A stretch of DNA of 40,103 bases from Candidatus Avelusimicrobium bubulum (GTDB taxonomy: Bacteria > Elusimicrobiota > Elusimicrobia > Elusimicrobiales > Elusimicrobiaceae): NCBI GenBank assembly GCA_902798835.1, contig CADBYN010000006.1:1-40103 (forward strand), in the 5' to 3' direction. Positions 6,545-21,536 of the stretch are shown here, in pieces. The notes beneath the pieces are model-generated. The model had not been told where the DNA came from. It did no database searches and worked only from the letters and a program-made list of their open reading frames with translations. Position 1 is the first letter of the stretch. Each line of letters starts with the position of its first letter. Position numbers and translations under genes: made by a program.

Positions 6545-8146
6545 TTATTTCTGTAACCATCGCCAAAACGCATCTTCAAACGCGGCAATGTTATTGTAGC
6601 GGTACACCTTCGCCAACGCCTTTTCCACCGAGTACGGCTCATACACTTGCTTGCCGCGGGAATCCTTTACCAAGAACCCGGTAGACGGGTTGCGCACGGC
6701 TTCCCCTTGTGCGATCAAACGGGTAAACTGCTCAAATTGCATCCGGTTAGAAGGAGAAATTCCCCCTCCCGGGTTGAGCAAGAAACGCACCATCAAGTAC
6801 GCTTGCAAATACCAATTTTGCACATTTGCTTGACCGCGTCCTTCCGCAGAGTCCAGGGAACCTTCCTGCATAAAATCTTCAAAGGGCATCAGCCGCACCG
6901 GTTTTCCGCGGCGGGGGCCCGTAGGTTTTTCATCGCGGTATTTGGGCGGCATAAACGATTTGGGTTTGCCAAAACCAAACGAAGAAGCGGACGTAAACGA
7001 ATTGGCCATGGTACTGGGATCGCGCTCGAAACGCAACGTGCGGTAATCGTGGTCCCACGGACCGCCGCGGGAAAACATTTGGTCTTCCACAAACACGGCC
7101 AGTCCTTCATCTAACCAAGTGGGCGTCATAATGCGCCCGGTATTGTGTTTATCAAAAAATTGCTGGGTAAAAATATGCGTTAGTTCGTGCGCGAACACTT
7201 CTTGCAGTTCACGGGAATGGCCGGGCTCGTCATAGACAACAATTTCCCCGCGCGTTGGATACGAAATAGCGCGCGTCCACGCTTTGGCTTCTGGCTCATA
7301 GCGCAAGTAAGAGTTATGATCTTGATACACAAATGCACGCACTTTGCCGCTCAACATCCACGGAATCAAGCGCCGCAAGGCATTGTAAGCCGTCTCAAAG
7401 TTAAGCGACATATTGGCCGAGCCGATAGCAGCCCCGTCTTCTGCTTTTTGGGTGTAAATTTCGAAATGGGTACTTTTGGAAGGAATCCACTCTACCCCCG
7501 GACGGAAAGCGCTGGGGTTAAATTTTTTGTTGGCAGCAGGCACTTTTGCGGGGCGGTTTTTGGCAGCGGAAGGCGGAATGACACGGCTGCCTTGTGCTTC
7601 TTCCTTAGATTTTTCAAGCATTTTCATGGCGTATTCCAGCTCGGCATCGGCGGCATCTTCCTCTTCGGTATTCTCGCCGGGTTGAGCTGTAGCGGTATCG
7701 GTAGAAACAACGGTATTTACCGGTGCGGTAAAAGCGCTTGTTTTTTTCGGCGAGGTAGGCGCGGGCGAAGCTACTTTGGTCTGCACGGAAGTATTCGTCC
7801 CGCCGATGGTAAGCGGCATATCCAATGTGTTGGCACCCGCCGCGGGGGCAACCGGCTTGGCAGCCGTAGTGGTAGAAACCGTAGTTGTTGAAAGAGTGGT
7901 CGTAGAGACCTCAGCGGCGGGAGGCGTTTTGGGCACGCGGGGTACGCGGGTTGCCTTGGAAGTAGCCGGGGCAAGCGGCGAGTTTTGGCTGGCAGCTTGT
8001 TTGAGCAAATCTACCGAAGAAGCAGGCGGCTCGGTAGTTGTATCGACAACTCTGATATTGGGGTCTATATTTCCCGCACCTTGTGCCCAAGCACTCGGTA
8101 CAAGTGCGCCTACAATGAATAACGCTCCCAACAAACCCTTATACAT
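6545..8146 (-). CDS. Secreted gluzincin-type metallopeptidase (peptidase MA-like) with Pro/Thr-rich linker
   Basis: 533 aa. A signal peptide (MYKGLLGALFIVGALVPSAWA) is followed by a long low-complexity Ala/Pro/Thr-rich segment (about 30-160, with runs such as STTTLSTTTVSTTTAA) and an acidic stretch. The catalytic domain has the zinc motif HELTH (H320, E321, H324) and a third ligand Glu347 in WLDEGLAVF, the arrangement of gluzincins such as peptidase MA. It starts 14 bases after the stop of the last pseudopilin gene, so it is probably the final gene of the pilin operon. It could be cargo of the secretion machine or a partner that trims its substrates; this is inferred from position only. Confidence 0.85.
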   Translation of the reverse strand: MYKGLLGALFIVGALVPSAWAQGAGNIDPNIRVVDTTTEPPASSVDLLKQAASQNSPLAPATSKATRVPRVPKTPPAAEVSTTTLSTTTVSTTTAAKPVAPAAGANTLDMPLTIGGTNTSVQTKVASPAPTSPKKTSAFTAPVNTVVSTDTATAQPGENTEEEDAADAELEYAMKMLEKSKEEAQGSRVIPPSAAKNRPAKVPAANKKFNPSAFRPGVEWIPSKSTHFEIYTQKAEDGAAIGSANMSLNFETAYNALRRLIPWMLSGKVRAFVYQDHNSYLRYEPEAKAWTRAISYPTRGEIVVYDEPGHSRELQEVFAHELTHIFTQQFFDKHNTGRIMTPTWLDEGLAVFVEDQMFSRGGPWDHDYRTLRFERDPSTMANSFTSASSFGFGKPKSFMPPKYRDEKPTGPRRGKPVRLMPFEDFMQEGSLDSAEGRGQANVQNWYLQAYLMVRFLLNPGGGISPSNRMQFEQFTRLIAQGEAVRNPSTGFLVKDSRGKQVYEPYSVEKALAKVYRYNNIAAFEDAFWRWLQK

Positions 8147-8160
8147 AATCCCCCGTCAAA

Positions 8161-8682
8161 TTATAATCGTGAAGCCCCGCCCAAAATATCGTACTTGATA
8201 ACACATTGGTTGGGGTCGATTAGATTATCTCTCCCTATGCGAGCATAGACACGAAGGTATGGCCCGGATGTGGTACTGGGATTCACTTCCGTTCCGTACG
8301 CCATTGAACAGTGATAATCTCTTTCCGTGTTATTGATGTTTACGCTGGGATCTGCCCCCACAACTTCCCCGTTTTCATTCACCTCGTTTGCCGATGTACC
8401 CGGAGGCGGATTGGTGCTTCCTTCCTCTGCATTATAAAATCGGCAGTTGGCTAAATCGTCTGCGAACTGTTGTGGGGTCTTTCTTGCCCATATCTCAGCA
8501 ATTTCTTTTCTGCACGCTTCAATAAGCATCTGTGCCTCCACCGTACGGCGCAGCATCCGCGCGGAGCGGGTGCGGGGCATGATGGCACGTAAAATCATAG
8601 TAGATAACCCCGCCAATACCGCGGCAATAATAAGCACTTGAAGCAAGGCAACCCCTTTTTTATTGAATTGAAATCTACGCAT
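8161..8682 (-). CDS. Minor pseudopilin, GspK/PilX-like (Gln at position 5)
   Basis: About 173 aa from ATG 8682; AGGAGGA is well spaced for this start, whereas GTG 8688 lies too close to it. The N terminus MRRFQFNKKG|VALLQVLIIAAVLAGL has the basic leader, the Gly before the cleavage site and the hydrophobic pilin helix, but position 5 is Gln instead of the near-universal Glu. GspK/PilX tip pseudopilins characteristically lack Glu5. It is last of a run of six prepilin-like genes and overlaps or nearly abuts its upstream neighbour. Cysteines in the head may form disulfides. Confidence 0.8.
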   Translation of the reverse strand: MRRFQFNKKGVALLQVLIIAAVLAGLSTMILRAIMPRTRSARMLRRTVEAQMLIEACRKEIAEIWARKTPQQFADDLANCRFYNAEEGSTNPPPGTSANEVNENGEVVGADPSVNINNTERDYHCSMAYGTEVNPSTTSGPYLRVYARIGRDNLIDPNQCVIKYDILGGASRL

Positions 8683-8684
8683 CT

Positions 8685-9317
8685 TCACTCCTCCTCAACA
8701 ACGGGAAACCCGTGCTGCATGACAAACGTTTCCTCAACCACATCATTGACAACCGGGTCTGTTCCAACTTCCACAATAATACTCACCTTCAACAATGACC
8801 CGACTTGGTCTTGTTGTTGGTATGTGATTTGCTCAAATCGCGGGGAAATAAAACCGGACGGATCGTTTTTTACGGTTTTTATGTTGCTAAGCCAAATTTC
8901 ATTATTGACAGGCACCCCTTGTTGTGATACACTCCGTTTGATTACCCCGCCGGTGTTGCTATTCTCTTTCTTAGTAAATTCATAGGTAATGAGTACGGGG
9001 TGATCAACAGTCATAGGCGTTGTGTCGCCCAAAACCCCAATATATTTCTGCCCCTGCGGATGCATGTGATTTATCTTTACCGATTTGACGGTACCGTCGG
9101 GATTTTTATAGACCCCTACTTGATCCGCAAAGGCAATGTCTTGGCGCAACTGCTGCATGGCTAGTGATAACTGATGACGCAACATTACCCGCGTGCGGCC
9201 CACGCCGCCTTCGCGCACGGCCGCCGTGGTAAGTGCCGCCAAAGCAATGCCAATCACCCCCACAATCAGGGCCGCCAGCAAAACTTCCATTAACGTAAAG
9301 CCTTTGTTATTCTTCAT
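8685..9317 (-). CDS. Pseudopilin, GspJ/PilW-like
   Basis: 210 aa with leader MKNNKG|FTLMEVLLAALIVGVIGIALAALT, i.e. a canonical type III signal with Phe1 and Glu5. The head is long and beta-rich, in keeping with GspJ/PilW-type minor pilins, and ends in an acidic EEE. Its ATG overlaps the stop of the preceding gene by four bases (ATGA), so translation is coupled. Confidence 0.8.
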   Translation of the reverse strand: MKNNKGFTLMEVLLAALIVGVIGIALAALTTAAVREGGVGRTRVMLRHQLSLAMQQLRQDIAFADQVGVYKNPDGTVKSVKINHMHPQGQKYIGVLGDTTPMTVDHPVLITYEFTKKENSNTGGVIKRSVSQQGVPVNNEIWLSNIKTVKNDPSGFISPRFEQITYQQQDQVGSLLKVSIIVEVGTDPVVNDVVEETFVMQHGFPVVEEE

Positions 9318-9769
9318 AATTCGTATCCGTTACATGTAACTTTAAACTTAATTCTGTCCGGGCGGACACCTCCGCTATAGGGCGCCCAAAAACTATTATC
9401 TAATTCATACGTAAAACTGGAGCTATTCCGATCACAAATAGGCGGCAACATACATTCAACGTGATGCGGTCCACTCCAACTCATGGGCTGTTGGTCTCCC
9501 CCACACAGGCCCTGTTGAAAGTCCTCAGGAATAGGGGCGTCTGTCAATACTGCCCCATTTTCGTCCACAACTCCGGTGTACATTTGAAGCAAGTTTTTTA
9601 CTTTTTCTACGGCAAATACCATCTCTTCGCGCACGTCCGGCTGGCTGGTCTGCCGGGATGCCGCCAGCAACACGCCAAAGGCGCCCCCGGCCACAAGGGC
9701 CAACAACCCCAAGGCAATAATGCCTTCCAAAACGGTTACCCCAGCTTTACTTTTTAATAGTTGCTTCAT
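9314..9769 (-). CDS. Pseudopilin, GspI/PilV-like
   Basis: 151 aa with leader MKQLLKSKAG|VTVLEGIIALGLLALVAG. Glu5 is present while position 1 is Val instead of Phe/Met. The small head has four cysteines (around CGGD, ECML, PPIC and VTC). SD GGAGA precedes the ATG. It sits between a pilin-like gene and the GspJ-like gene, the usual place of the I/V type subunit. Confidence 0.75.
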   Translation of the reverse strand: MKQLLKSKAGVTVLEGIIALGLLALVAGGAFGVLLAASRQTSQPDVREEMVFAVEKVKNLLQMYTGVVDENGAVLTDAPIPEDFQQGLCGGDQQPMSWSGPHHVECMLPPICDRNSSSFTYELDNSFWAPYSGGVRPDRIKFKVTCNGYEL

Positions 9770-9781
9770 AAATTTTCTCCG

Positions 9782-10327
9782 CTAATCCAGCTTAGGACAT
9801 TCTTCCGTAACGCTATGATCCCGGTACACGCACCAGGTGTCACCAGCATGTCTCCTGGCGGCTTCCGTTCCTACCGCTCTAACAAGCAAGCTTATGTCCT
9901 GGTCCAGCAGCCAATCTTTACGAGACGAAAACTCATACGGCAAGCCCTCAAAATCCTTTACAGACAAGTAACCGCACGCGAACAACTGCGTCAACGTGGT
10001 CGTCACATTATTATTCGCCCCCGGAATACCCGAAAGCAGCTGTGTATTACACGCAGCTTGTGCAGCCTCCCGTGCGGAAACAGAGTCGTCACTTGCGGAC
10101 TCCGTTTTCCCGGCTATTGTAGGTCCCTCGGGATCGAAAGTAACGCCTTTTGTGTCTTTGTAGTACAAACGTACAGCATCCGCCATTTTAACAGCAGCGG
10201 TTTTAGCCTGGTGGTACGTAATTTCATCGCGGACCGCGCGTATCCCGGGCATGGCAAACGAAACTACTACTGCCAACACAAGCAGTACAGCTAAAATTTC
10301 CATCAACGTGAAACCTTTGGTATTCAT
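9782..10327 (-). CDS. Type IV pilin-like protein
   Basis: 181 aa with leader MNTKG|FTLMEILAVLLVLAVVVSFAMPGI, canonical for class IVa prepilins, and SD AGAGGA six bases before the ATG. The head contains the pilin-like CGYLSVKDFEGLPYEF element and a C-terminal cysteine pair region (WCVYRD, EECPKLD). Third of the last four genes upstream of the peptidase. It could be a GspH-like or an additional major-pilin-like subunit. Confidence 0.8.
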   Translation of the reverse strand: MNTKGFTLMEILAVLLVLAVVVSFAMPGIRAVRDEITYHQAKTAAVKMADAVRLYYKDTKGVTFDPEGPTIAGKTESASDDSVSAREAAQAACNTQLLSGIPGANNNVTTTLTQLFACGYLSVKDFEGLPYEFSSRKDWLLDQDISLLVRAVGTEAARRHAGDTWCVYRDHSVTEECPKLD

Positions 10328-10335
10328 AGTATCCT

Positions 10336-10860
10336 CTAATTATTGCGCAAGGGGTTCTCCAAAAATTTCGACCCGTTCCCGTTCGTGCAATAAATGGCTG
10401 TATCTGTAATTTTTGCCGAATTTTTCTCTATACAGACCCCGGTGATCCAGTTTACGTCCGAAGATCTTTCCTTATACTGCTCTAACCACATTTTAAAATT
10501 TCGCTTGTAATTTTGTCCGTCACGCACTTCCGCGGCATATTGCCGATATTCCAAGTACCCGCAGTCCACCAAGTTCTGCAAAGAAACCGTATTGGTGAAG
10601 CAATGCGGCACACCGCTTGCTCTTTCTCGGTTTGGATCGTTTATTTGCCCCATTTCATTTGTATTAAGCACAGCGCTGGGATGATCCATCAAAAAACGCT
10701 GCGCGGCGGCCGCCACAATTTTAGCACGGGCCTTGGCATCTTCTACGCGGATATCCGAGGCAGTACCCCGAAACGATTGCGTTGCAAAAATTGCCAACGT
10801 GCCAATAATGGCCGCTGCAATTAATAATTCCAACAAGGTAAAACCGTTTCTGCGTTTCAT
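10336..10860 (-). CDS. Type IV pilin-like protein
   Basis: 174 aa from ATG 10860 (GAGGA six bases upstream); an in-frame TTG at 10875 overlaps the expected SD and is rejected. Leader MKRRNG|FTLLELLIAAAIIGTLAIFA has Phe1 and Glu5. The head shares an element with its neighbours (LQNLVDCGYLEYRQYAAEV), pointing to duplication within the cluster. Confidence 0.82.
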   Translation of the reverse strand: MKRRNGFTLLELLIAAAIIGTLAIFATQSFRGTASDIRVEDAKARAKIVAAAAQRFLMDHPSAVLNTNEMGQINDPNRERASGVPHCFTNTVSLQNLVDCGYLEYRQYAAEVRDGQNYKRNFKMWLEQYKERSSDVNWITGVCIEKNSAKITDTAIYCTNGNGSKFLENPLRNN

Positions 10861-10875
10861 AAAATTCCTCGCCAA

Positions 10876-11463
10876 TTAACTACCACACTTGTCTGCTTTA
10901 AAACGTTCAATACGCCCTGTTGCATACATCCGTGCACCGTAGAAACAACCCGTTGCATTACTGATACTCTTCTGACACATACACGCAATCACCGGCGCGA
11001 TGACTGTGCTTCCTGCCGGCTTCGGACAATTACCGCCGCAAGCGGTGGGTTTCCCCGCATCTTCGTTGATACCGTAGAAGTTGTAGCCGTCGTCCGATGC
11101 CAGCGGCTCCAAGTAATTCAGCGCAAACAAAGTGGCCGCGAAACGTTTATTGGTATTACTTCCCCCATGGCTTATAAAATAGCTGGGCGTGTCGATACAT
11201 CCCAACTGAACGGTACCGTTAACAGGCATCTGAAAGGAGCCAGCCCCCGTCGGGAACGTAAACGTATAGTTTTCCTTCCAGGATAAATCTTTGCGCAGCG
11301 ATTCAATAGCGTTACCGATGCTGACTAACGTACCTACGGCCGCCTCGTAACGGGAACGCTCTTGCGAACGCTTGTAGGCCGGTATGGCATACGCCACAAT
11401 TCCGGCCACAATAACCAGCACAAATAAAATTTCTACCAGCGTAAAACCTTTCCTGCGCAACAT
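10876..11463 (-). CDS. Type IV pilin-like protein, first gene of the pilin operon
   Basis: 195 aa with leader MLRRKG|FTLVEILFVLVIVAGIVAYA and a head rich in cysteines (CIDTP, CGGNCP, CMCQ, GCFYG, KCGS). It is the first gene behind the strong promoter at 11491-11519 and has an excellent SD (AGGAGG), so it may be the most abundant subunit (major pilin or major pseudopilin). It shares the FALNYLEPLASDDGYNF element style with the next pilins. Confidence 0.82.
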   Translation of the reverse strand: MLRRKGFTLVEILFVLVIVAGIVAYAIPAYKRSQERSRYEAAVGTLVSIGNAIESLRKDLSWKENYTFTFPTGAGSFQMPVNGTVQLGCIDTPSYFISHGGSNTNKRFAATLFALNYLEPLASDDGYNFYGINEDAGKPTACGGNCPKPAGSTVIAPVIACMCQKSISNATGCFYGARMYATGRIERFKADKCGS

Positions 11464-11490
11464 AACACGCCTCCTAGGGTGCCTTTCTTA

Positions 11491-11519
11491 AGTATGGTGC
11501 ATAAACGCCCATTTGTCAA
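11491..11519 (-). promoter_or_regulatory. Promoter of the pilin/pseudopilin operon
   Basis: TTGACA (11519-11514) and CATACT (11496-11491) with a 17-base spacer, about 28 bases before the first pilin ATG and in the gap after pilC. A perfect -35 and optimal spacing suggest strong expression independent of the upstream assembly genes. Confidence 0.75.
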
Positions 11520-11536
11520 GGGCTTGCGTCCGCTTG

Positions 11537-12760
11537 CTAGCTACCGATTTGAGACAGTTTGAAGATCGGCAAGAAGATGGACGCCACAATAATACCAATC
11601 AGCACACCGACACTGACAATTAAGATCGGGTCGATTACCGCCGAGAAACGTGCAATAAACTGATCCACGTTATCAGCGTAGAATTTAGAAAGGGTTTGAA
11701 TAATGCTAGGTAATTTACCGGATTCTTCACCCATTCTCATCATTTCCGTCATCAGCCCGGGGAATACCCCTGTGGCGGCAAACGAATCGGAAATCGACTG
11801 ACCGGCCGCTACTTCGGCGCGCACTTGCTTAAGCGCGTTTTGGATGATGATGTTCCCTTCGAACGATTCTTCCAATACTCCAATAGCGTTCAAAATGGTT
11901 ACACCGCTACGCAGCAAGGTGGCCAACGTGGAAAGCATACGGTCAAAGTAAATATTGCGGATGAACGGACCAAAAATAGGCATGGTCAGCACAAACGAGT
12001 GCCAGCGTTTACGTCCGTTGGGCGTGTGGATATAAAAACGAAACCCAAATATAATGAGGAGAAACACTAAAATCAGCGCAATGGCATGGTTGGTAATGAC
12101 GCTGGATACTTTAAGCACGGCAACCGTCAACATAGGAAGTGACAAGTTAAAGTCCGCAAAGATCTGCGCGAACGTAGGTACAATTCCCACGATGAAGTAA
12201 ATAAGCACACCCACGGAAGCTAACGTCAAAATAGCCGGGTAGGTGATAGCCGTAATAATTTTGCTCTTCATCCCTTCTTGCGTTTTGGTATAGATGGCCA
12301 GTTGCATCAACGTCTCGGCGATTTGACCGCCTACTTCCCCGGCTTCCACCAGCGAAATCCACACATGGCTAAATGTTTTGGGATGCTGGGCCATGGCTTC
12401 GTGTAACGATTGACCGCCCGAAATATCGTGCGAGATTTGCGTAAGCACCATCCCCATCGTGGGGTTGGCGGAATATTGCCCTAACAAAGAGATAGCACGC
12501 ACGAGCGGCACACCCCCGGCGATTAACGTGGACAACTGTTCTGCAAAAAAGGCCAACACGTGCCCGGGCACTTTGCCGCCTTTGCGCCGCGTACCCGACT
12601 TAACAGACGAGAACAATCCTCCCGTCGCCTCAGAAATATCCAATACGAAATAGCCCTTGTTTTGCAAAGCCGCACGCAAGCGGTCTTTGCTGTCGGTAGT
12701 ATAAGAACCCGTAAAGATCTTCCCATGTTCATCTTTTACTTTGTATGTATATTTTGGCAT
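11537..12760 (-). CDS. pilC: Type IV pilus / type II secretion platform protein (PilC/GspF)
   Basis: 407 aa, typical length. Inner-membrane platform on which the assembly ATPase acts. Two T2SSF domains are visible, each with the motif pattern LSTLIAGGVPLVRAI / LATLLRSGVTILNAI, with membrane helices around ILTLASVGVLIYFIVGIVP, IALILVFLLIIFGF and the C-terminal ILIVSVGVLIGIIVASIFLP. It follows pilB by 21 bases with SD GAGGG. Confidence 0.93.
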   Translation of the reverse strand: MPKYTYKVKDEHGKIFTGSYTTDSKDRLRAALQNKGYFVLDISEATGGLFSSVKSGTRRKGGKVPGHVLAFFAEQLSTLIAGGVPLVRAISLLGQYSANPTMGMVLTQISHDISGGQSLHEAMAQHPKTFSHVWISLVEAGEVGGQIAETLMQLAIYTKTQEGMKSKIITAITYPAILTLASVGVLIYFIVGIVPTFAQIFADFNLSLPMLTVAVLKVSSVITNHAIALILVFLLIIFGFRFYIHTPNGRKRWHSFVLTMPIFGPFIRNIYFDRMLSTLATLLRSGVTILNAIGVLEESFEGNIIIQNALKQVRAEVAAGQSISDSFAATGVFPGLMTEMMRMGEESGKLPSIIQTLSKFYADNVDQFIARFSAVIDPILIVSVGVLIGIIVASIFLPIFKLSQIGS

Positions 12761-12781
12761 AATTTACCCTCTGAAATTATG

Positions 12782-14518
12782 TTATTCATCCGCCGTTGTA
12801 ATACTTAAAATCTCGTCCACGGTGGTAATTCCGCGGATTACTTTGTGCCATCCGTTGGCACGCAAGTTAAGCGCACCGGAATTGTTAGCCGCTTTGCGTA
12901 GTGCAATTAAATCTTGCGTCTTATAAATAATGTTACGCATTTCTTCATTCATGCGGTATACTTCGTAAATAGCACGGCGGCCGCTATAGCCCGTATTGAA
13001 ACAACGCGGGCAACCCACCGCTCTAAAGAACGTCCACGAGTTACGCTCGCGCGGGTTGAGATGCCCTTCGCGAATAATGCGTTCCATGGTAGCTGCATCC
13101 GGAATATGAGGCACTTTACAATGCGGGCAAAGCACACGCACCAAACGCTGCGCTGCCACAAGTGCGAGCGAGCTTGCTAACAGGAAGGGCTCCATCCCCA
13201 TATCGATTAAACGGGGAACCGCCCCCAACGCATCGTTCGTGTGCAACGTAGAAAGCACCAAGTGACCGGTTAAGGCAGCTTTTAAGCACGCCTCGGCCGT
13301 TTCGTTATCGCGGACCTCCCCCACCAGGATGACATCCGGGTCCTGACGTAAGAAGGAACGTAACCCGGCCGCAAACGTAAGCCCGATGGCCGGCTTTACC
13401 TGTACCTGACTGATACCGGCCAGTTTATATTCGACCGGGTCTTCCAAAGTCATAAAGTTCAGTTCGCTGGTACGGATGGTGGTAAGTACGGCGTTCAACG
13501 TCGTAGATTTACCGGACCCTGTAGGCCCTGTCAAAAAGATAAGTCCGTGCGGTAAATTGGCCGCTTCCAAAAACGCTTTCTTTTGGTCCGGCTCAAAGCC
13601 CAACTTATCAATGTTCATTTCCCCCGTTCCTTTATCCAAAATACGAAGCACTAATTTTTCTCCGTATACGGCCGGACACACAGACACACGGACTTCAATG
13701 GAACGGTTTTGATAACGGATGGTAAAACTTCCGTCCTGCGGCAAACGCTTTTCGGCGATATCGAGTTTAGACAAAATTTTAATACGGGAAATAATTGCGT
13801 TTACGGCGTCTTTGGCAGGGGCCGTACGTTCGTAAAGCGAACCGTCAATACGGAAACGCAAACTGACACGTTCATCAAACATCTCTAAGTGAATATCACT
13901 GGTACGCTCGGAAATAGCTTGACGCAAAATAGCGTTTACCTGTTTTACATACTGCGAGGCCGTAGGGGCCATGCGGTCCAGGTCCAACACGCCGGTCACT
14001 TCTACTTCTTCCTCGTCTGCTGCGTTTACATCCGTCGGGCCGGAGTGCACAGTTTCGTTGAGTACTTCTTCCAACAAATTCTTGTTGGTATAGAAAGCAT
14101 CCATCACCGCCAGCAACTGTGACTTAGACGTGATAAACGGCTGAACTTGTTTGCCGGACATCATTTTGATGTTCTCAATGACGAACAAGTTTGTCGGATC
14201 CAAGAGCGCCACTGCCAACGAGTCATCTTCCACAAACAAGGGGACGATCATATTCTCGCGGGCAAATTTTTCAGGGATAATTTCTTGTAGATTTTGTTCT
14301 TTTTCCGGCACTAAAATGCCGTTTTCTTTCGAAGCGTATGGAATGGAAAAATGCTTAGACAGGGCGATGGTCACTTGCTCCTCGGTTGCAAAACCGGATT
14401 GCATAATGGCCTCTGCTATCGGGGTATTGTTTTGCTTGGCATACAAGTGTACTTGTTTGCTTTGCTCCGGAGTAATAACCCCTTGATCCATTAAAATTTC
14501 GTCTAACTGTTTTGCCAT
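12782..14518 (-). CDS. pilB: Assembly ATPase PilB/GspE
   Basis: 578 aa. Hexameric ATPase that drives pilus or pseudopilus extension. The N-terminal MshEN/GspE-N domain (about 1-150) may bind c-di-GMP in some homologues, which is of interest given the PilZ gene nearby. Walker A GPTGSGKST is at 331-339, the Asp box is around MTLEDPVEY, Walker B is DVILVGEVRD (395-404), and the His box is HLVLSTLHTNDA. The zinc site is C464xxC467 with C503xxC506. Both the zinc site and the N domain mark it as an extension ATPase, not PilT. Confidence 0.95.
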   Translation of the reverse strand: MAKQLDEILMDQGVITPEQSKQVHLYAKQNNTPIAEAIMQSGFATEEQVTIALSKHFSIPYASKENGILVPEKEQNLQEIIPEKFARENMIVPLFVEDDSLAVALLDPTNLFVIENIKMMSGKQVQPFITSKSQLLAVMDAFYTNKNLLEEVLNETVHSGPTDVNAADEEEVEVTGVLDLDRMAPTASQYVKQVNAILRQAISERTSDIHLEMFDERVSLRFRIDGSLYERTAPAKDAVNAIISRIKILSKLDIAEKRLPQDGSFTIRYQNRSIEVRVSVCPAVYGEKLVLRILDKGTGEMNIDKLGFEPDQKKAFLEAANLPHGLIFLTGPTGSGKSTTLNAVLTTIRTSELNFMTLEDPVEYKLAGISQVQVKPAIGLTFAAGLRSFLRQDPDVILVGEVRDNETAEACLKAALTGHLVLSTLHTNDALGAVPRLIDMGMEPFLLASSLALVAAQRLVRVLCPHCKVPHIPDAATMERIIREGHLNPRERNSWTFFRAVGCPRCFNTGYSGRRAIYEVYRMNEEMRNIIYKTQDLIALRKAANNSGALNLRANGWHKVIRGITTVDEILSITTADE

Positions 14519-14543
14519 TTCATACTCCCCTTACAAACGATAC

Positions 14544-14575
14544 GTATACCTGCCCTCGGGTGAGGGCAGGTATAC
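14544..14575. promoter_or_regulatory. Perfect 14-bp hairpin between pilQ and pilB
   Basis: GTATACCTGCCCTC and its exact complement are separated by four bases, in the 67-base gap between the pilQ stop and the pilB ATG. There is no T tract, so it is more likely an mRNA processing/stability element or a partial attenuator than a full terminator. Confidence 0.7.
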
Positions 14576-14585
14576 AAACTCACAC

Positions 14586-16166
14586 TTACTCGGCCAAAAT
14601 GGTCGGCGTAATAAAGATGACTAAGTCAGTCGTGCTCTTTGATTTAGCGCGGCTGGTAAACAACCACCCCAGTATCGGGATATCACCCAAGAGCGGTACT
14701 TTGCGGGTTTGGTCGGTTTCGCGGGAGGTCAACAAACCGCCAATCACAACCGTTTGTCCGTTTTTCACACGTACCAAGGTAGAAGCGGCACGGGTGGTGG
14801 TATCGAGGGCAAAGTCAAACCCGGAGCTGATCACGTCGGAGTAAGTAGGTTGTACAAACAACGTGACGTACCCTTCGCGGTTTACCTGCGGGGTGACTTG
14901 TAACGTTAAACCCACACGTTTACGTTCGGCGGAAGTCGTGGTGGTAGCCGTGGCAGTTGTGCTGCCGGTATCGGTTACCGTGCGGCCTACCGTGGCGTCC
15001 GTGGAGGTGGTAATCGTAGCGGTTTTGTTGTTCAAGGTAACCACTTTGGGTTTACCTAAGTATTTGGCTTCACCGCGGGTCAAAAGTGCTTTGAGCACAA
15101 TGTTAAAGGCAGAGAAGTTGAGCACGCCGGCTTCTATGTTACCGGAAGAGCTATTAGACGTAGTTTCGCCATAATCCGTCGTGGTGGTGGTAGAGTTGCT
15201 GTCTTTATCCGCGTCCACCTCTGATTTGCTAGGGAAAATCCAATCCCAGCCGTGCAATTTGTTTCCGTCCACACCGCGGCCGTGGAATACATCGGAATAC
15301 AACGGGCGGGTAGGCGCTTGCACGGAAACAATCGTTCCGTCGCCGCCGCCGTATTCAAAGCCCAAGCTCAAACCGCTGGTTTTGCTGACTTCTACGATTT
15401 GGGCTTCAATTAAAATCTGCGGAGGTTTAATATCCAGCTCGGCCAAGATGTTTTCCACTTGCGGGAAAACTTCCGGCACGTCGGTAATGATGAGCTTGTT
15501 GGTGCGCGGGTCTACGGCAATTTTACCCACGGGAGAGAGCATGCTGCCCACAATCCCGGTAATGGTAGAGCCGGAAGCATAGGAGTCGCCCCCGGTGTTG
15601 CCGCTTTGTCCGTAACTGCCCATGTTTCCGCTGGATACGTCTTGCGGCATAATGCTGTTGAGTTCCCCTTGGGCAGAGCCAAGCCCTTGCAGAGAAATGT
15701 AGCTAAGCGTATAGATTTTGGTAATGGTATCGGGTGCATCGTTGGAGCGTTTGGTTACTACGTAGCTATCGCTCTTACCGATACGTTGATAAGCCAGGCC
15801 GTGTACCCGCAACAAGGTATCGAGTGCTTCACGCACGGTTACGCGGGTCAAAGAAGCCGTTACTTTTTTATTGGCGAATTCTTCGCTCATAATAAAGTTA
15901 ATTTTGGCTTGGGTAGTAATACTGTTCAAGAAAGCCGATATCGGCACATTGGCTACCCGGATAGAGACAATTCTGTCCAGCGGGGACTGCAATTCTATCT
16001 CTTTATATAAGTCCTCTGCAGCGGTGGACGTTTTTGCCTCATTACCTACTAGCGCAATCGTATCGTCGCTGGGGAGTATCTGGCGTTCTTGTTGTGCTAC
16101 CGCCGTACCTGCAAGCCCCAAGGCTATTACGCTTGCGAATATTACAGCTATACGTTTTGTCATCAT
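14586..16166 (-). CDS. pilQ: Outer-membrane secretin (PilQ/GspD family)
   Basis: 526 aa with a signal peptide (up to GTAVAQ). It forms the gated outer-membrane channel for the pilus or secreted proteins. A STN-type domain (VPISAFLNSITTQAKINFI) is followed by an N1-like domain (about 150-245, interrupted by a Gly/Ser-rich insertion GSYGQSGNTGG), then the secretin domain. The latter has VDPRTNKLIITD, PPQILIEAQIVEVSK and the C-terminal signature VPLLGDIPILGWLF. A Thr-rich loop (TTTTTDYGETTS) lies within the barrel region. SD AGGAGG precedes two adjacent ATGs; the second (16163) has the better spacing. Confidence 0.93.
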   Translation of the reverse strand: MMTKRIAVIFASVIALGLAGTAVAQQERQILPSDDTIALVGNEAKTSTAAEDLYKEIELQSPLDRIVSIRVANVPISAFLNSITTQAKINFIMSEEFANKKVTASLTRVTVREALDTLLRVHGLAYQRIGKSDSYVVTKRSNDAPDTITKIYTLSYISLQGLGSAQGELNSIMPQDVSSGNMGSYGQSGNTGGDSYASGSTITGIVGSMLSPVGKIAVDPRTNKLIITDVPEVFPQVENILAELDIKPPQILIEAQIVEVSKTSGLSLGFEYGGGDGTIVSVQAPTRPLYSDVFHGRGVDGNKLHGWDWIFPSKSEVDADKDSNSTTTTTDYGETTSNSSSGNIEAGVLNFSAFNIVLKALLTRGEAKYLGKPKVVTLNNKTATITTSTDATVGRTVTDTGSTTATATTTTSAERKRVGLTLQVTPQVNREGYVTLFVQPTYSDVISSGFDFALDTTTRAASTLVRVKNGQTVVIGGLLTSRETDQTRKVPLLGDIPILGWLFTSRAKSKSTTDLVIFITPTILAE

Positions 16167-16208
16167 TCCTCCTATGTGAGTTTCCTACTAAATGAGTCTT
16201 TATTGTTT

Positions 16209-16757
16209 TTATAATTGCAACTTCTTTACAAATTTGTGTCCTTTATATGAGAACGTAACCGAATCAGCCCCCACGCTGACGATCTTGGCCCCCAAATAAG
16301 AATTGCCGATGGTATAGAGCTTGCCGCCAATGAGCACCTCTTTGTCAATAATACCGCTAATTCTAATTTTATCACGCACCACAATGGACGGATCTTTCAT
16401 CAGCAACAATTCCCATTGGCGTTTGCGTTCTTCTTCTTCACGGCGTTTGCGCTCTTCGGCTTCGCGGCGTTTGCGTTCGGCCTCTTGTGCGGCTAAACGT
16501 TGTTTTTCCCGGTATTCCAATAGCAATACATCATCCGCAGAAAGCATCGGGTCACGCTTGTTGGTGGGATTAAACGTTACCTTTATTTTCTGTAATCCCT
16601 TGCTGGAATTGCTGGAAGAAGACCGTCTGCTTTTGGCACGACGCGTGCCGGGGCGCTTCCTGGGCCCGTTAGATTGTTGTGCGCCGGCAGAAGTACCCGT
16701 AAGGGCTATCAGCCCCGCCAACAGAACCGTTATATAAAACCGTGTATTAAGACGCAT
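16209..16757 (-). CDS. PilP-like periplasmic pilus-assembly protein
   Basis: 182 aa from ATG 16757, which overlaps the pilO stop by 11 bases; a longer frame starts inside pilO but lacks the signal peptide at its front. The signal peptide is MRLNTRFYITVLLAGLIALTGTSAGA. Then come a very basic Arg/Ser segment, RDPM, a highly charged single helix (about 85-120, alternating E/R/K), and a C-terminal small beta domain (RISGIIDKEVLIGGKLYTIG ...). That C-terminal part matches the pattern of PilP/GspC homology regions that touch the secretin. The order O-P-Q fits pilMNOPQ operons. Confidence 0.78.
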   Translation of the reverse strand: MRLNTRFYITVLLAGLIALTGTSAGAQQSNGPRKRPGTRRAKSRRSSSSNSSKGLQKIKVTFNPTNKRDPMLSADDVLLLEYREKQRLAAQEAERKRREAEERKRREEEERKRQWELLLMKDPSIVVRDKIRISGIIDKEVLIGGKLYTIGNSYLGAKIVSVGADSVTFSYKGHKFVKKLQL

Positions 16758-17556
16758 TGGCTTTTTCCTCCTCTGCGGGAGTTTTAGGCTCTTCCTTACC
16801 AGCAGCCGTATCCTGCGCTGCCATTTCCGCTTCAATCTGTTTCATTTGTTGCGTATAGTCTTTAAATAAGCGTTTGGCATATTTTTCCCGAGGGAATACA
16901 GTATTAAAACGTACGTTGACCGTGTTTTCCCCTAACGAGGCCGCATCCATCAACTTGGTGATTGTCAACCCGGAAATACGCAAGAAATCATCTCCGCTTT
17001 CCACGTCAGCTAAAAACTTGCCCACATCGGCAAAGCTGCGCCTAAACGTAACGTCTTGGGTCAGCATGGTATAATTTTCGTTTACTTTTTCCGCCACGTT
17101 ACCGTTAATATCTGCCTGGATTTGATGGGCGGCAAACGCTTTCATTAACGTCTGCACCAGCCACTCGTTCTTTTTACCCATATCCGGGAACAACGGCTCT
17201 AAGCGCAACAAGCGCGACTTGTTGGCCAGGTAGTCGTCCTGGTTGGTTTGCTGAATGGAAATAGCAGACACGCGGTCCACAATTTGTTCTTTCTCAACGG
17301 ATAATTTACCCACTAAGAACCGAACCCCCAAAAAGGCAAGCAGCACCACAACAAATTGTTTTACAAACAACTGGTACTTGCCCTCGTCAAATACAGCTTT
17401 CACATCCGCCATTCCCTGTTTCCACGCAGTCATTTTAGTGTTGGAAGCAGCCGGTTTATCCGACGACGAAACAACCGTATTTCCCGTTTGGGGAACCGGA
17501 GTGCTAGTTTTGCCAGGGGCGATACGCTGTTTTAATTTATTAAAATCAAACGCCAT
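16747..17556 (-). CDS. PilO-like inner-membrane assembly protein
   Basis: About 269 aa from ATG 17556, two bases after the upstream stop. A cytoplasmic N-terminal segment (about 50 residues) and one membrane helix (QFVVVLLAFLGVRFLVG) are followed by a coiled-coil and a periplasmic ferredoxin-like domain, the layout of PilO/GspM. The long hydrophilic N-terminus and the Glu/Lys-rich C-terminus (KEEPKTPAEEEKANAS) are extensions compared with typical PilO. It forms the inner-membrane alignment complex with the PilM-PilN fusion. Confidence 0.8.
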   Translation of the reverse strand: MAFDFNKLKQRIAPGKTSTPVPQTGNTVVSSSDKPAASNTKMTAWKQGMADVKAVFDEGKYQLFVKQFVVVLLAFLGVRFLVGKLSVEKEQIVDRVSAISIQQTNQDDYLANKSRLLRLEPLFPDMGKKNEWLVQTLMKAFAAHQIQADINGNVAEKVNENYTMLTQDVTFRRSFADVGKFLADVESGDDFLRISGLTITKLMDAASLGENTVNVRFNTVFPREKYAKRLFKDYTQQMKQIEAEMAAQDTAAGKEEPKTPAEEEKANAS

Positions 17557-17557
17557 T

Positions 17558-19147
17558 TTATTCGTAATCCCTCCTCGAATCAAGGCTACACGAAAGGGTA
17601 AACTTCGTTTCGGCAGCTAACCCTTTGCGTTTGCTATCCGAGGAACCTTGCGTATAACGGATGTTTGCATTACGGCACAAATCAAGAAGTTCCCGTTGCT
17701 GCGCTAAGGCTTCTTTAAAACGTCCCCCTATAATCAAGTCTTCCCCGCTTTCTTTGCCGGAAGCAATCGTCCCTGCAATTTCAAGGGCGCCTTCTCCCCG
17801 GCGTGTGTTGGGAAATGTAGAATTATAGGAAATGCGGTTAAGCCACATGTTTTGCTGCATAGAATTGGCCACCGCAACTAAAATCGGTGTTACAATCGGG
17901 GTGTTCGAGTAAATTTCGGACAAGGTTTCATTTTGTGTCTTAATATTACTCAAATTATTTTTGAGTTCTGTGGCCGTGAGACCTTTGAAATCGTCCAGCA
18001 GATTTTGAGAAACGCTCTGTTTCTTTTTGAGCTGGTAGTTCGCCATAAGCAACCCCACATAACTCTTCCCTAAGAATAATAAAAGAACTAATAGGATGAT
18101 ACCCGCTATTTTCCACGCCATCCAACTGGCATTAAATTCATAGGCGGTCAACCGTTTGCCGCGGGTAAAGTCGATATCCGGCACTTTTTGGTTGAAGAAT
18201 TTACCGCTGGCCCCGATGGCTGCCATTTCCCCGACGGCTTTGGTTTCTATCCCCACTACTTCTTTGAGGTCCCATTGCCGCACCGGTTTACGGGCATCTG
18301 TTTCCAACACGCTGCGCCATTGGTCGATGTTATAGCCCATAATGACGGCTTCTTCAAAGGGGTCGCGTTCGAGTTGTTTGGCAATAAACTCGGTACTGTT
18401 GGTAATTTCAAAACGCCTTCTTTCGGCCGGGAGCGAACCGGAAATTTCCACTTCGCGCCCTAAGATGGGGGTCATCCCGTTTAAAAATACAAAGCTGGCT
18501 TTGTCTTTCCCGAAGAACGAATAAATCCGCCCGCCTTTGCCGACGGCTTCCTTATCATTATCACTAAACACGCGGCCCAGGGAAACACAATCCGGCTCTA
18601 CGGAAACTAATTCAAGCCCTAACGATTTAAGCCCCTTTTTAAGGCGTTCGATGACGGTTTTGGTCGTCATAGTAAACACAACGCCCAAGCGTTTTTGCTT
18701 GGTCGTGGCGGTTTCAAATTCGTAAACGTGATATGCGTAAACGGCTTTATCAAACGTGAAGTGAATATACTTGCGCGCCTCGTTGGGGATCCCTTCCGCC
18801 CATTCGCTGCGTTTGAGCGGAATAGTAATTACAAAGTGACGCAATAAGCAGAATTCGGGGGATAAGCTGACTACTACCTTATTAGTATTCCACGTTTTTT
18901 TGGCGGTTACTTTTCCCAAAGCATCCAGCCAGTTATCCATCGTGAAATAACTTTCGTTCAAGTCCAGCGGTTTGAGGCGGCTTCTGTCTACAATGTTGAC
19001 CGGCACGCGAATAAGCGACTCAAGCGTCATGCCGCCTTCGCGCTTGGAGCTTTGTGCTACATAAATTTCATCTATGCCAATATAGATACCCAAACAGTCC
19101 GGATGGGCACCCATATTGTTTCCGACTAAAATTTCCGACAGATTCAT
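17558..19147 (-). CDS. PilM-PilN fusion (GspL-like inner-membrane assembly protein)
   Basis: 529 aa. Residues about 15-330 resemble the actin-like PilM/GspL cytoplasmic domain (LGIYIGIDEIYVAQSS at the start and NKVVVSLSPEFCLLRHF). One membrane helix follows at about 343-368 (MAWKIAGIILLVLLLFLG), then a coiled-coil and a periplasmic PilN-type domain (VAVANSMQQNMWLNRISY). In type IV pili PilM and PilN are usually separate genes; here they form one chain, as in GspL of type II secretion. First core assembly gene of the cluster. Confidence 0.82.
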   Translation of the reverse strand: MNLSEILVGNNMGAHPDCLGIYIGIDEIYVAQSSKREGGMTLESLIRVPVNIVDRSRLKPLDLNESYFTMDNWLDALGKVTAKKTWNTNKVVVSLSPEFCLLRHFVITIPLKRSEWAEGIPNEARKYIHFTFDKAVYAYHVYEFETATTKQKRLGVVFTMTTKTVIERLKKGLKSLGLELVSVEPDCVSLGRVFSDNDKEAVGKGGRIYSFFGKDKASFVFLNGMTPILGREVEISGSLPAERRRFEITNSTEFIAKQLERDPFEEAVIMGYNIDQWRSVLETDARKPVRQWDLKEVVGIETKAVGEMAAIGASGKFFNQKVPDIDFTRGKRLTAYEFNASWMAWKIAGIILLVLLLFLGKSYVGLLMANYQLKKKQSVSQNLLDDFKGLTATELKNNLSNIKTQNETLSEIYSNTPIVTPILVAVANSMQQNMWLNRISYNSTFPNTRRGEGALEIAGTIASGKESGEDLIIGGRFKEALAQQRELLDLCRNANIRYTQGSSDSKRKGLAAETKFTLSCSLDSRRDYE

Positions 19148-19174
19148 AATCCCAAATTCCCCTCATCCTCTATA

Positions 19175-21379
19175 TTAAAAGGAGGTATATTCTTCCTCAT
19201 ACGGCATTTCATACGGATTGGCGCTTACATTCTGCACATCGGTTACGCCGTCGCTATACGATGAAGAAGACGATGAAGAAGACGAAGACGATGACGTTAC
19301 CGTTCCCGCCGAGCTAGTATCATCCGTTACAATCGTGCGGACGGTTTTGGTATGCGTATACGTATCATCCCGGGTGCTTTGTGCGCTACCTTCGCTATGC
19401 GCATCGGCTTGCACCTGCACCGTTTCTTCTACATTTTCTTTTACTGCGGCCGTCTCTTGGATTTTACCGTCGCGCATAATGCGGCCGGGTTTTTTCCACA
19501 AACGTGCCGATTTATAATCTAACACCGCCGATTTAGCAGCTACTGTTTTAGCCGTGGCGGTAGTCGTTATCGCGCACTTGCCTTCTTGGCAAGAGCCTGT
19601 GGTGGCTACTTCCTGCGCACATTTTACAATGACGCGGTAGCGCAACACTTGTTTCTGTCCTTTCAAATCGATTCCTGTAAGTACGAGGGTATATTTACCG
19701 CACGGAAGTTCCGGCCCAATAATCCCTTTGCGGCCGTTCCACAAGATTTGGTGATATACCGGCGAGAAACCTTCCAGCTGACGCACGACATAAAATTTAC
19801 CGTCGCGGCCGTGCCAAATCACTTGCAACACCCAGTTATCTAACGGGGTTTCCGTTTCGAGCACAGAAAAATCGATTGCATACGCTTCCCCTAACGAACG
19901 GTCAATCGCGCGGCAAGGCGGAACAATCGCCATGCTCAAAAGCGGAGTCGTTTGTTTTTCTTCATTATCTAATAAGCGCGTAGGTAATTTAGCATCGTAA
20001 TCAAAGACAACGGAAAGACCTTTTAAATTAGAAAATTTGGCGGGGATTTCTTCATTTGCTAACCCCATGTTATAGGAAAGTTTCCCTTCTGAAATACCGC
20101 GTTTTACTAAATAAGATTTTAACGCCATCGCTTGGCGAATTTTGGCTAACGTCACATCATCTGTGTAAGAGCCGGAAGGCAAAATCGTGTAACTGGCCCC
20201 TTGCGTGAGGGCTAAGAGTTCATAAATGTAATTGAGTGTGTCCAACGAATCCGAACGAAAATAATTTCCTTTAAACAAAACATCATCATCTACGTCAATG
20301 GCATCCGGGCGGCCATCTTCACGCAAATACAAATGCACACCGGGCGTGTTGCGCAAAGCAGTTTCCGCTTCTTGCGTCATGCTTTGTATTTTTTGCGCCG
20401 TGTACAAGTTGCGCGCTTGGATTGCCTCGGGGCTGGTTAAATCGGCAAACGTGGAAGAAGTCAGCTGCGCTTGCGTAGTAGGCACCGTGTACGTGGTGGG
20501 CACGGCGTATGTGGTGGTAGGTTCGGTCGTATCGACCGGGGCCGCGGCATACGCAACCGGCTCTGTGTACGTCACGGGGACGTACGCAACGGGTTGCTCT
20601 GTCGTCGTAGTAGGAATCACATAAGCAGTGGGTTGAGTCGTGGTAGTAAGCGGGGTGACGAGCTCGTTACTCATGCTGCGTTCACGCGGAGCTGGTACGC
20701 CTATCGTCGTTGTGGGCGCTTCCAACGCGTCTATTTCTTGCTGGGTAGGAATCAAATCAGCGGGCGCGGCAACAGGAGTCACCACGGGCGTCTGCGCAAC
20801 AGGTTGCACGGTTTGAACGGGTTGCACCATTTGGATCGGTTGCGGTTGAATCGGCTCGAGCATATTGACAGGTTCTACCGTAGTCGCGGGAACGGTTTTT
20901 TGCGGTTCTTCGTCAATTACGTAGCCGTCTAATTGGCGCGCTTCAATTTGTTCGGTTAAAGTTCGCGGAGCTTCTCCAAACGCATCGATAACTTCCTGCG
21001 TAGCGACATCGGCTTGGGTAGCCAGCGTATTCAAACGTTCCGTACCGAAGTTCGCTAAATTGTTGGCAGGATCTACCACCGTTTGTGTGGGTTGTTCCGG
21101 GAATTTCAAGTCCACTTCGACCGGAGTTTCAATACCACCGATTTTGTTGTGAATGGCATCGATGTAGTTATTGGCACGGGCTTGTTGTGCAGCAGTCCCG
21201 TTCATCAACACATCCACAAAGTAATCCATGGCTTTGTCGGTATCGTTTTTGCGAAAGGCTTCAATCCCTTTCTCCAACGATTTCTCTGCCGAGGTGGCGG
21301 CACGGGCGATATCTCCTACACACATCAATCCGCCCACGAGTACGAGTACATACAATAACGGTCTTTTCATTTCTCTCAT
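19175..21379 (-). CDS. Large exported protein with Pro/Thr repeats and an OmpA-like segment, head of the pilus operon
   Basis: 734 aa (731 if ATG 21370 is used). The signal peptide is followed by a TPR-like helix pair (EKGIEAFRKNDTDKAMDYF). A Pro/Val/Thr/Gln-rich linker then runs over about 150-310 with short repeats (EPVAYAAAP, EQPVAYVPV). A globular part at about 320-450 contains IRQAMALKSYLVKRGISEGK, which resembles the OmpA C-terminal helix, and a beta-rich region follows (about 470-600). The tail is acidic with an uninterrupted run of twelve or more Ser residues. I do not recognise a family; it may be a FimV/TsaP-like peptidoglycan-spanning helper of the secretin. It lies directly behind the operon promoter and 28 bases before the PilM-PilN gene. 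Confidence 0.75.
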   Translation of the reverse strand: MREMKRPLLYVLVLVGGLMCVGDIARAATSAEKSLEKGIEAFRKNDTDKAMDYFVDVLMNGTAAQQARANNYIDAIHNKIGGIETPVEVDLKFPEQPTQTVVDPANNLANFGTERLNTLATQADVATQEVIDAFGEAPRTLTEQIEARQLDGYVIDEEPQKTVPATTVEPVNMLEPIQPQPIQMVQPVQTVQPVAQTPVVTPVAAPADLIPTQQEIDALEAPTTTIGVPAPRERSMSNELVTPLTTTTQPTAYVIPTTTTEQPVAYVPVTYTEPVAYAAAPVDTTEPTTTYAVPTTYTVPTTQAQLTSSTFADLTSPEAIQARNLYTAQKIQSMTQEAETALRNTPGVHLYLREDGRPDAIDVDDDVLFKGNYFRSDSLDTLNYIYELLALTQGASYTILPSGSYTDDVTLAKIRQAMALKSYLVKRGISEGKLSYNMGLANEEIPAKFSNLKGLSVVFDYDAKLPTRLLDNEEKQTTPLLSMAIVPPCRAIDRSLGEAYAIDFSVLETETPLDNWVLQVIWHGRDGKFYVVRQLEGFSPVYHQILWNGRKGIIGPELPCGKYTLVLTGIDLKGQKQVLRYRVIVKCAQEVATTGSCQEGKCAITTTATAKTVAAKSAVLDYKSARLWKKPGRIMRDGKIQETAAVKENVEETVQVQADAHSEGSAQSTRDDTYTHTKTVRTIVTDDTSSAGTVTSSSSSSSSSSSSYSDGVTDVQNVSANPYEMPYEEEYTSF

Positions 21380-21427
21380 CAGACACTCATTCCTTGCGCT
21401 AGATTGTTTCTACAATCGCACGCCGAT

Positions 21428-21461
21428 ATTGCTATTATAGCAATTTCGAGCGATTTGTAAA
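21428..21461 (-). promoter_or_regulatory. Promoter of the pilus assembly operon with a palindrome over the -10
   Basis: TTTACA (21461-21456), a 16-base spacer and an extended -10 TGCTATAAT (TATAAT at 21439-21434). The -10 sits inside a perfect 17-base palindrome ATTGCTATTATAGCAAT (21428-21444), so a regulator binding there would block the promoter. The leader is about 50 bases. Confidence 0.65.
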
Positions 21462-21536
21462 GACATTTTTTTTTGTTTACAATTTGTCCTTTTTGCTTTT
21501 CCCTTTTACTACCTAAAAATTGTATCAAAATTTCAG

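What the first reader, a model, noticed from the sequence alone, without database searches (positions are those of the whole stretch)
6545..21379. Compact hybrid type IV pilus / type II secretion machine with six pseudopilins and its own envelope protein
Gene order matches pilMNOPQ-B-C, yet the subunit set (GspH/I/J/K-like plus a PilM-PilN chain like GspL) and the absence of pilT and pilD here look like a secretion system. The operon begins with an unknown 734-aa envelope protein and ends with a metallopeptidase. It may be a dedicated exporter in a lineage where secretion is poorly described.
Basis: partly seen in the sequence, partly recalled or inferred. Interest (0 to 1): 0.7.

Follow-up and report, generated by a model that had tools for sequence, protein, structure and literature searches.

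The report
Third-lineage pilus machine of Elusimicrobia
This gut bacterium (family Elusimicrobiaceae) has one conserved gene cluster for a filament machine that is neither a standard type IV pilus nor a standard type II secretion system; its relatives lost their ordinary pilus machine, so this one probably now builds the cell's pili from a stock of about 60 interchangeable pilins.

Summary
A 14-gene minus-strand operon (21379 to 6545) encodes a 734-aa envelope protein, a GspL-like PilM-PilN fusion, PilO/GspM-like and PilP/GspC-like proteins, secretin, one PilB/GspE, one PilC/GspF, six pilin-like proteins and a zinc peptidase, with no linked pilT or pilD. The operon is conserved across Elusimicrobiaceae and, with 3-4 pilins, across class Elusimicrobia; sister loci exist in Omnitrophota. 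Trees of the ATPase and platform protein make it a third lineage: its ATPase branches beside canonical PilB, and grouping it with T2SS is rejected (p-AU 0.011). In relatives outside the gut clade it coexists with an ordinary type IVa pilus. In the gut clade the ordinary pilB, pilC and pilMNOPQ are gone; this operon is then the only non-Tad extension machine, while pilD, an ftsZ-linked pilT2 and T4aP-derived pilT1 remain in trans, and pilins reach 12 to at least 73 per genome against 18 or fewer elsewhere. Most likely it is a T2SS-like machine that took over pilus assembly, not a dedicated exporter. A Wzy_C-TPR gene just upstream belongs to the cluster. New variant of a known kind; function untested.

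The parts
21537..24161 (-). Wzy_C (O-antigen ligase-like) plus TPR membrane protein, 874 aa; conserved directly upstream of A734; candidate pilin O-oligosaccharyltransferase or glycan polymerase
   Evidence: Pfam PF04932 1.2e-11 plus TPR; tblastn hits adjacent to A734 in 18 of 22 operon loci from family, order and class; none found in L065, L111, L069 or L071 (L065, L069 and L071 hold only about 0.2-1 kb upstream)
21434..21461 (-). promoter-like site (TTTACA-16-TATAAT, TG-extended) 54 bases upstream of A734
   Evidence: consensus scan only
19175..21379 (-). A734: signal/TM start, short helical-repeat-like region, low-complexity linker, OmpA-like domain, Ig-like domain, Ser/Thr-rich tail
   Evidence: no Pfam hit in the window copy; AlphaFold model of residues 326-595, mean pLDDT 73.8; Foldseek hits PA0833 and YiaD OmpA-like domains and Ig-like domains; OmpA Pfam hits in relatives; 30/30 family genomes
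17558..19147 (-). PilM-PilN fusion (GspL-like), 529 aa
   Evidence: hhalign to PilM 99.5 and PilN 97.4; PilM_2 weak
16747..17556 (-). PilO/GspM-like inner-membrane protein (ATG at 17556 after a GAGGAGG site preferred to TTG at 17583)
   Evidence: hhalign to PilO 98.1; weak T2SS_GspM
16209..16757 (-). PilP/GspC-like protein with coiled coil and HR-type beta domain, no lipobox
   Evidence: alignment A8, model pLDDT 85.7, Foldseek top hits GspB, PulC HR, GspC HR, also PilP; sequence-only match to PilP inconclusive
14586..16166 (-). secretin (STN, one Secretin_N, secretin core), no AMIN
   Evidence: Pfam; PilQ 229.5 and GspD 217.1 bits, both under cut-off
14543..14576 (-). 15-bp stem-loop between secretin and ATPase genes, possible attenuator or processing site
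   Evidence: pattern scan only
12782..14518 (-). assembly ATPase (PilB/GspE type), MshEN N-domain, CxxC pairs
   Evidence: Pfam T2SSE 9.5e-133; NCBIfam pilB 575.9 and gspE 556.6, both under cut-off; tree
11537..12760 (-). platform protein (PilC/GspF type)
   Evidence: Pfam T2SSF 3.8e-50; GspF 332 vs PilC 311 bits; tree
10876..11463 (-). pilin-like protein p1
   Evidence: N_methyl
10336..10875 (-). pilin-like protein p2 (H/FimU-like)
   Evidence: N_methyl; GspH N-terminus 28 bits
9782..10327 (-). pilin-like protein p3
   Evidence: N_methyl
9314..9769 (-). pilin-like protein p4 (GspI/PilV position)
   Evidence: weak N_methyl; conserved position
8685..9317 (-). pilin-like protein p5 (GspJ/PilW position)
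   Evidence: N_methyl 2.3e-6
8161..8688 (-). pilin-like protein p6 (GspK/PilX-like, no Glu5, too short for the GspK insertion)
   Evidence: GspK 19 bits at N-terminus; KG[VAS]AL.QV motif in relatives
6545..8146 (-). predicted exported gluzincin metallopeptidase (HExxH ... E) closing the operon
   Evidence: Peptidase_MA_2 2.3e-6, under cut-off; HExxH and downstream Glu conserved in 11 family sequences

Best explanation
The operon encodes a distinct type IV filament machine, shared by class Elusimicrobia and some Omnitrophota, that stood as a second, T2SS-like machine beside an ordinary type IVa pilus. In the gut clade of Elusimicrobiaceae the ordinary pilus core was lost, and this machine became the only non-Tad assembler of type IV filaments. 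Proposed working: PilD, encoded elsewhere, cleaves prepilins; the fused PilM-PilN/GspL-like protein with the PilO-like and PilP/GspC-like proteins couples the PilB-type ATPase and PilC-type platform to the secretin; the operon pilins p4-p6 prime a tip complex; A734 ties the secretin or periplasmic cage to peptidoglycan; subunits from a pool of about 60 orphan T4a pilins are polymerised; and PilT1 (perhaps also PilT2) retracts the fibre. Likely uses are adhesion with a variable surface and DNA uptake (ComEC is present). SHOWN: gene content, conservation, loss of the canonical core, origin of PilT1, pilin numbers. INFERRED: that the orphan pilins are assembled by this machine, that PilT acts on it, and the roles of A734, Wzy_C-TPR and the peptidase.
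For: One PilB-type ATPase, one platform and one secretin outside the Tad locus. Operon conserved in 11 further family loci; orthologues in order and class beside a separate canonical pilB-pilT-pilC and pilMNOPQ. ATPase clade X (Elusimicrobiota plus Omnitrophota) SH-aLRT 100, beside Elusimicrobiota/Rokubacteria PilB (97), away from T2SS; X with T2SS rejected, p-AU 0.0109; platform tree gives X as its own clade, 98. Gut-clade PilT1 lies inside the pilC-linked T4aP PilT clade of the phylum, 98. Early-branching G003 and G005 still hold a canonical PilB and a pilT-pilC pair and have 17 and 13 pilins; G004 and the rest lack the canonical core and have 12 to at least 73. 60 orphan pilins, all with Glu5, 26 with the exact N-terminus FTLIELLVVVLIIGILAAIALPQYQ, heads in many unrelated clusters. 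ComEC in 29/30 genomes.
Against: No experiment. Published isolates of the phylum are described as non-motile (PMC11257099), so retraction is not known to be used for twitching. Some gut genomes without the canonical core have only 12-18 pilins, so the expansion is not a necessary result of the loss. The core loss looks like a single event on the tree, so the correlation is n=1. A co-resident Tad locus could assemble other filaments, though Tad pilins differ.
Confidence: 0.6

Rival explanations
1. Dedicated protein secretion system, convergent with T2SS: a short pseudopilus from the operon's own six pilins pushes folded substrates out through the secretin; orphan pilins are substrates or belong to the Tad system; PilT1/PilT2 do something else.
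For: GspL-like fusion, GspC-type HR protein without a lipobox, I/J/K-like set, no linked pilT; coexists with a canonical T4aP in free-living relatives, so it was not redundant with it. Precedent: a T4aP-derived secretion system in Bacteroidetes (PMC6668835).
Against: Orphan pilins have the canonical T4a N-terminus, unlike Tad pilins, and need an assembler; PilT1 is kept in nearly all gut genomes; no GspG hallmark DPWG in p1-p3; p6 too short for a GspK insertion; secretin has one Secretin_N repeat.
Confidence: 0.2
2. Simply a divergent type IVa pilus operon with scattered pilT and pilD, as is common for T4aP; nothing beyond lineage drift.
For: Gene order MNOPQ-B-C; ATPase branches beside PilB; pilT and pilD in trans.
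Against: A separate canonical T4aP coexists in relatives and is a different clade for both ATPase and platform; M-N fusion; PilB and PilQ scores under cut-off whereas canonical homologues in the phylum pass them (L073 and L098 for pilB, L077 for pilQ).
Confidence: 0.1
3. A DNA-uptake (competence) machine only: the filament serves transformation, with pilin heads as DNA or surface receptors.
For: ComEC in 29/30 family genomes; isolates non-motile (PMC11257099); one long pilin weakly resembles ComP.
Against: Dozens of divergent Cys-rich heads are more than DNA uptake needs; ComEC is widespread and no competence gene is linked.
Confidence: 0.1

Closest known systems
Type IVa pilus (PilMNOPQ-B-C, PilT)
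   Same: Gene order; PilB-side ATPase; separate PilO-like protein; PilT and PilD in the genome; T4a-type orphan pilins
   Different: PilM-PilN fused; PilP-like protein without a lipobox; no AMIN in the secretin; pilT and pilD unlinked; coexists with a canonical T4aP in relatives
Type II secretion system (Gsp)
   Same: GspL-like fusion, GspC/HR-like protein, H/I/J/K-like pilins in one operon, no linked pilT; GspF the best NCBIfam match of the platform protein
   Different: ATPase not in the GspE clade; secretin with one Secretin_N repeat; no DPWG GspG; short K-like pilin; PilT present in genome
T4aP-derived secretion system of Bacteroidetes (Cytophaga; Denise et al. 2019, PMC6668835)
   Same: A T4aP-side machine with a T2SS-like role proposed
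   Different: No Bacteroidota among the 80 best ATPase relatives apart from one contig titled Chryseobacterium whose T4aP groups with Bacillota; direct comparison not done
Tad pili (present on contig C4)
   Same: Second filament system in the same genome; Tad already reported for Elusimicrobia (PMC6668835, PMC8809381)
   Different: Own ATPase, platform pair and secretin; unrelated to the window operon

Membership tests
Type IVa pilus | PilB-clade assembly ATPase | tested here: met
   Branches beside canonical PilB, 97; grouping with T2SS rejected; but under the NCBIfam pilB cut-off
Type IVa pilus | separate soluble PilM and bitopic PilN | tested here: not met
   fused in one 529-aa protein
Type IVa pilus | lipoprotein PilP | tested here: not met
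   no lipobox Cys in the window protein; N-terminal membrane anchor in relatives, whereas most canonical PilP of the phylum have a lipobox
Type IVa pilus | retraction ATPase PilT in the genome | tested here: met
   two PilT-family ATPases over cut-off, unlinked
Type IVa pilus | long surface fibres, twitching or retraction | not testable with these tools
   needs microscopy
Type II secretion system | GspE-clade ATPase | tested here: not met
Type II secretion system | GspL-type bitopic protein with ASKHA cytoplasmic part | tested here: met
Type II secretion system | GspC-type HR protein | tested here: met
   fold match to GspC/PulC HR, moderate E-values
Type II secretion system | GspD with N0-N3 domains | tested here: not met
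   one STN and one Secretin_N
Type II secretion system | major pseudopilin GspG (DPWG, calcium site) and GspK with insertion | tested here: not met
   no DPWG in p1-p3; p6 175 aa with weak GspK N-terminus
Type II secretion system | secretes folded periplasmic proteins | not testable with these tools
   needs secretome
Tad | TadA ATPase, TadB/TadC pair | tested here: not met
   those lie on contig C4

The most novel reading that the evidence does not exclude
A machine swap: after losing the canonical T4aP core, gut Elusimicrobiaceae use a T2SS-like machine, paired with the orphaned T4aP PilT, to assemble and retract fibres built from a mix of about 60 modular pilins with shared N-termini and unrelated heads, giving a combinatorial cell surface in a 1.3-1.8 Mb genome.
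Probability: 0.4. Interest if true: 0.8.

Novelty: new variant of a known kind. Interest (0 to 1): 0.6.

Why it matters
Type IV filaments have repeatedly shifted between pili and secretion systems, but most known shifts run from pilus to secretion. Here a T2SS-like machine stands alone where an ordinary pilus machine was lost, with intermediates preserved in the same family (G003 and G005 before, G004 and others after). That makes the reverse shift testable, and it offers a natural case of one assembler serving dozens of pilins in animal-gut bacteria whose surface biology is almost unknown.

Tried and rejected
Single-sequence comparison with E. coli GspL, GspM and GspC was uninformative. Pfam and NCBIfam could not type A734, the peptidase or several pilins. 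Sequence-only PilP match of the PilP-like protein was inconclusive (18.6), so a fold comparison was used. The plasmid search gave mainly GspE hits, and none was used. The E. minutum genome paper was not held; from memory it may already mention many pilin-like genes, unverified. The idea of chance ORFs or assembly artefact was rejected by conservation in 11 further family loci. Considered and rejected: membership of Tad or ComG systems.

Full report
What is there. The window lies on contig C6 of a 1.35 Mb, 96% complete genome. Relatives found by name are Elusimicrobium sp. and other Elusimicrobia; one family genome, G001, is a single 1,643,562-base contig, the size I remember for E. minutum Pei191, so I place the window in Elusimicrobiaceae. 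The 14 genes from 21379 to 6545 were confirmed. M is a PilM-PilN fusion with one membrane helix, as in GspL; the next gene is PilO-like; the third is a PilP/GspC-like HR protein by fold. A734 has an OmpA-like core followed by an Ig-like domain, and some relatives carry a second, recognisable OmpA domain at the C-terminus. A Wzy_C-TPR gene sits directly upstream of A734 in most relatives, so the cluster is better taken as 6545-24161.

Conservation. The 14-gene order was found in 11 further family loci, a few of them cut by contig ends or with diverged pilins; A734 in 30 of 30 family genomes searched. In the same order and class the operon exists with 3-4 pilins (G/H-like, I, J, K positions) and often the peptidase. 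Those genomes also carry pilB-pilT-pilC and, where examined, pilMNOPQ as separate loci (L073, L078, L081, L084; L077, L080). Omnitrophota loci L115-L117 share the fused M and the order up to the ATPase or beyond.

Phylogeny. In a 100-row ATPase tree the operon's ATPase falls in a clade of Elusimicrobiota and Omnitrophota (SH-aLRT 100), beside canonical PilB of Elusimicrobiota and Rokubacteria (97) and away from T2SS GspE. Forcing it with T2SS is rejected (p-AU 0.0109; the group was chosen after seeing a tree, so treat as indicative). The platform protein forms its own clade (98) separate from both T4aP and T2SS sets. It is a third lineage, from the T4aP side by its ATPase, with T2SS-like layout.

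The rest of the genome. T2SSE matches in the window genome: this ATPase, a Tad ATPase, and two PilT-family ATPases. Platform and secretin: this operon and Tad only. pilD lies close to pilT1. The same 4-match pattern holds in 28 of the 30 family genomes sampled; two have 5. PilT1 lies inside the phylum's pilC-linked T4aP PilT clade (98), PilT2 in an ftsZ-linked clade (100). The window genome has 68 N_methyl matches; 60 recovered orphan pilins all have Glu5 and share the T4a N-terminus, with mature lengths of 71-579 residues and mostly 4-8 cysteines. The shortest of these may be fragments or truncated frames.

Timing. Early-branching family members G003 and G005 (2.2-2.3 Mb) still have extra PilB-type ATPases and a pilT-pilC pair, with 17 and 13 pilins; G004 and the remaining gut genomes lack the canonical core and have 12 to at least 73 (the search scores at most 73 candidates). 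Non-family genomes have 18 or fewer. A rank test gives a very small p, but the genomes are related and the loss is probably one event, so I use it only as description.

Mechanism. See best explanation; the step from 'only available machine' to 'assembles the orphan pilins and is retracted by PilT1' is inference. Natural transformation is plausible (ComEC). Published isolates are non-motile (PMC11257099). Independent origins of T4aP-derived secretion systems are discussed in PMC6668835.

Limits. Trees are quick searches. The A734 model is of medium confidence from six sequences, and the HR fold hits have modest E-values.

Noticed in passing
L094:8928-13020 (window genome C26); L223, L258, L262, L265, L268, L271: A PilT-family ATPase (PilT2) sits between ftsZ and cmk, next to an FtsA-like gene, in the family and in order f2; a distinct clade (SH-aLRT 100). 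A PilT in the division cluster is unexpected.
   Followed up: partly
   Followed up: partly
L211, L206, L216 (window genome): Very long Cys-rich pilins of about 430-590 aa with 20-29 cysteines; one (L216:1265-3028) matches RHS repeats.
   Followed up: partly
L003:2343-3803; L257:3826-5703: Conserved gene upstream of pilT1, 486 aa in the window genome, GYF_2-like start by eye, no Pfam hit.
   Followed up: no
L002:838-3486: Tad ATPase fused to a CpaE-like ParA domain, 882 aa, in the Tad locus on C4.
   Followed up: no
window 14543-14576: 15-bp stem-loop between secretin and ATPase genes.
   Followed up: no
window 2327-3130: Trypsin-like serine protease gene, unrelated to the finding.
   Followed up: no
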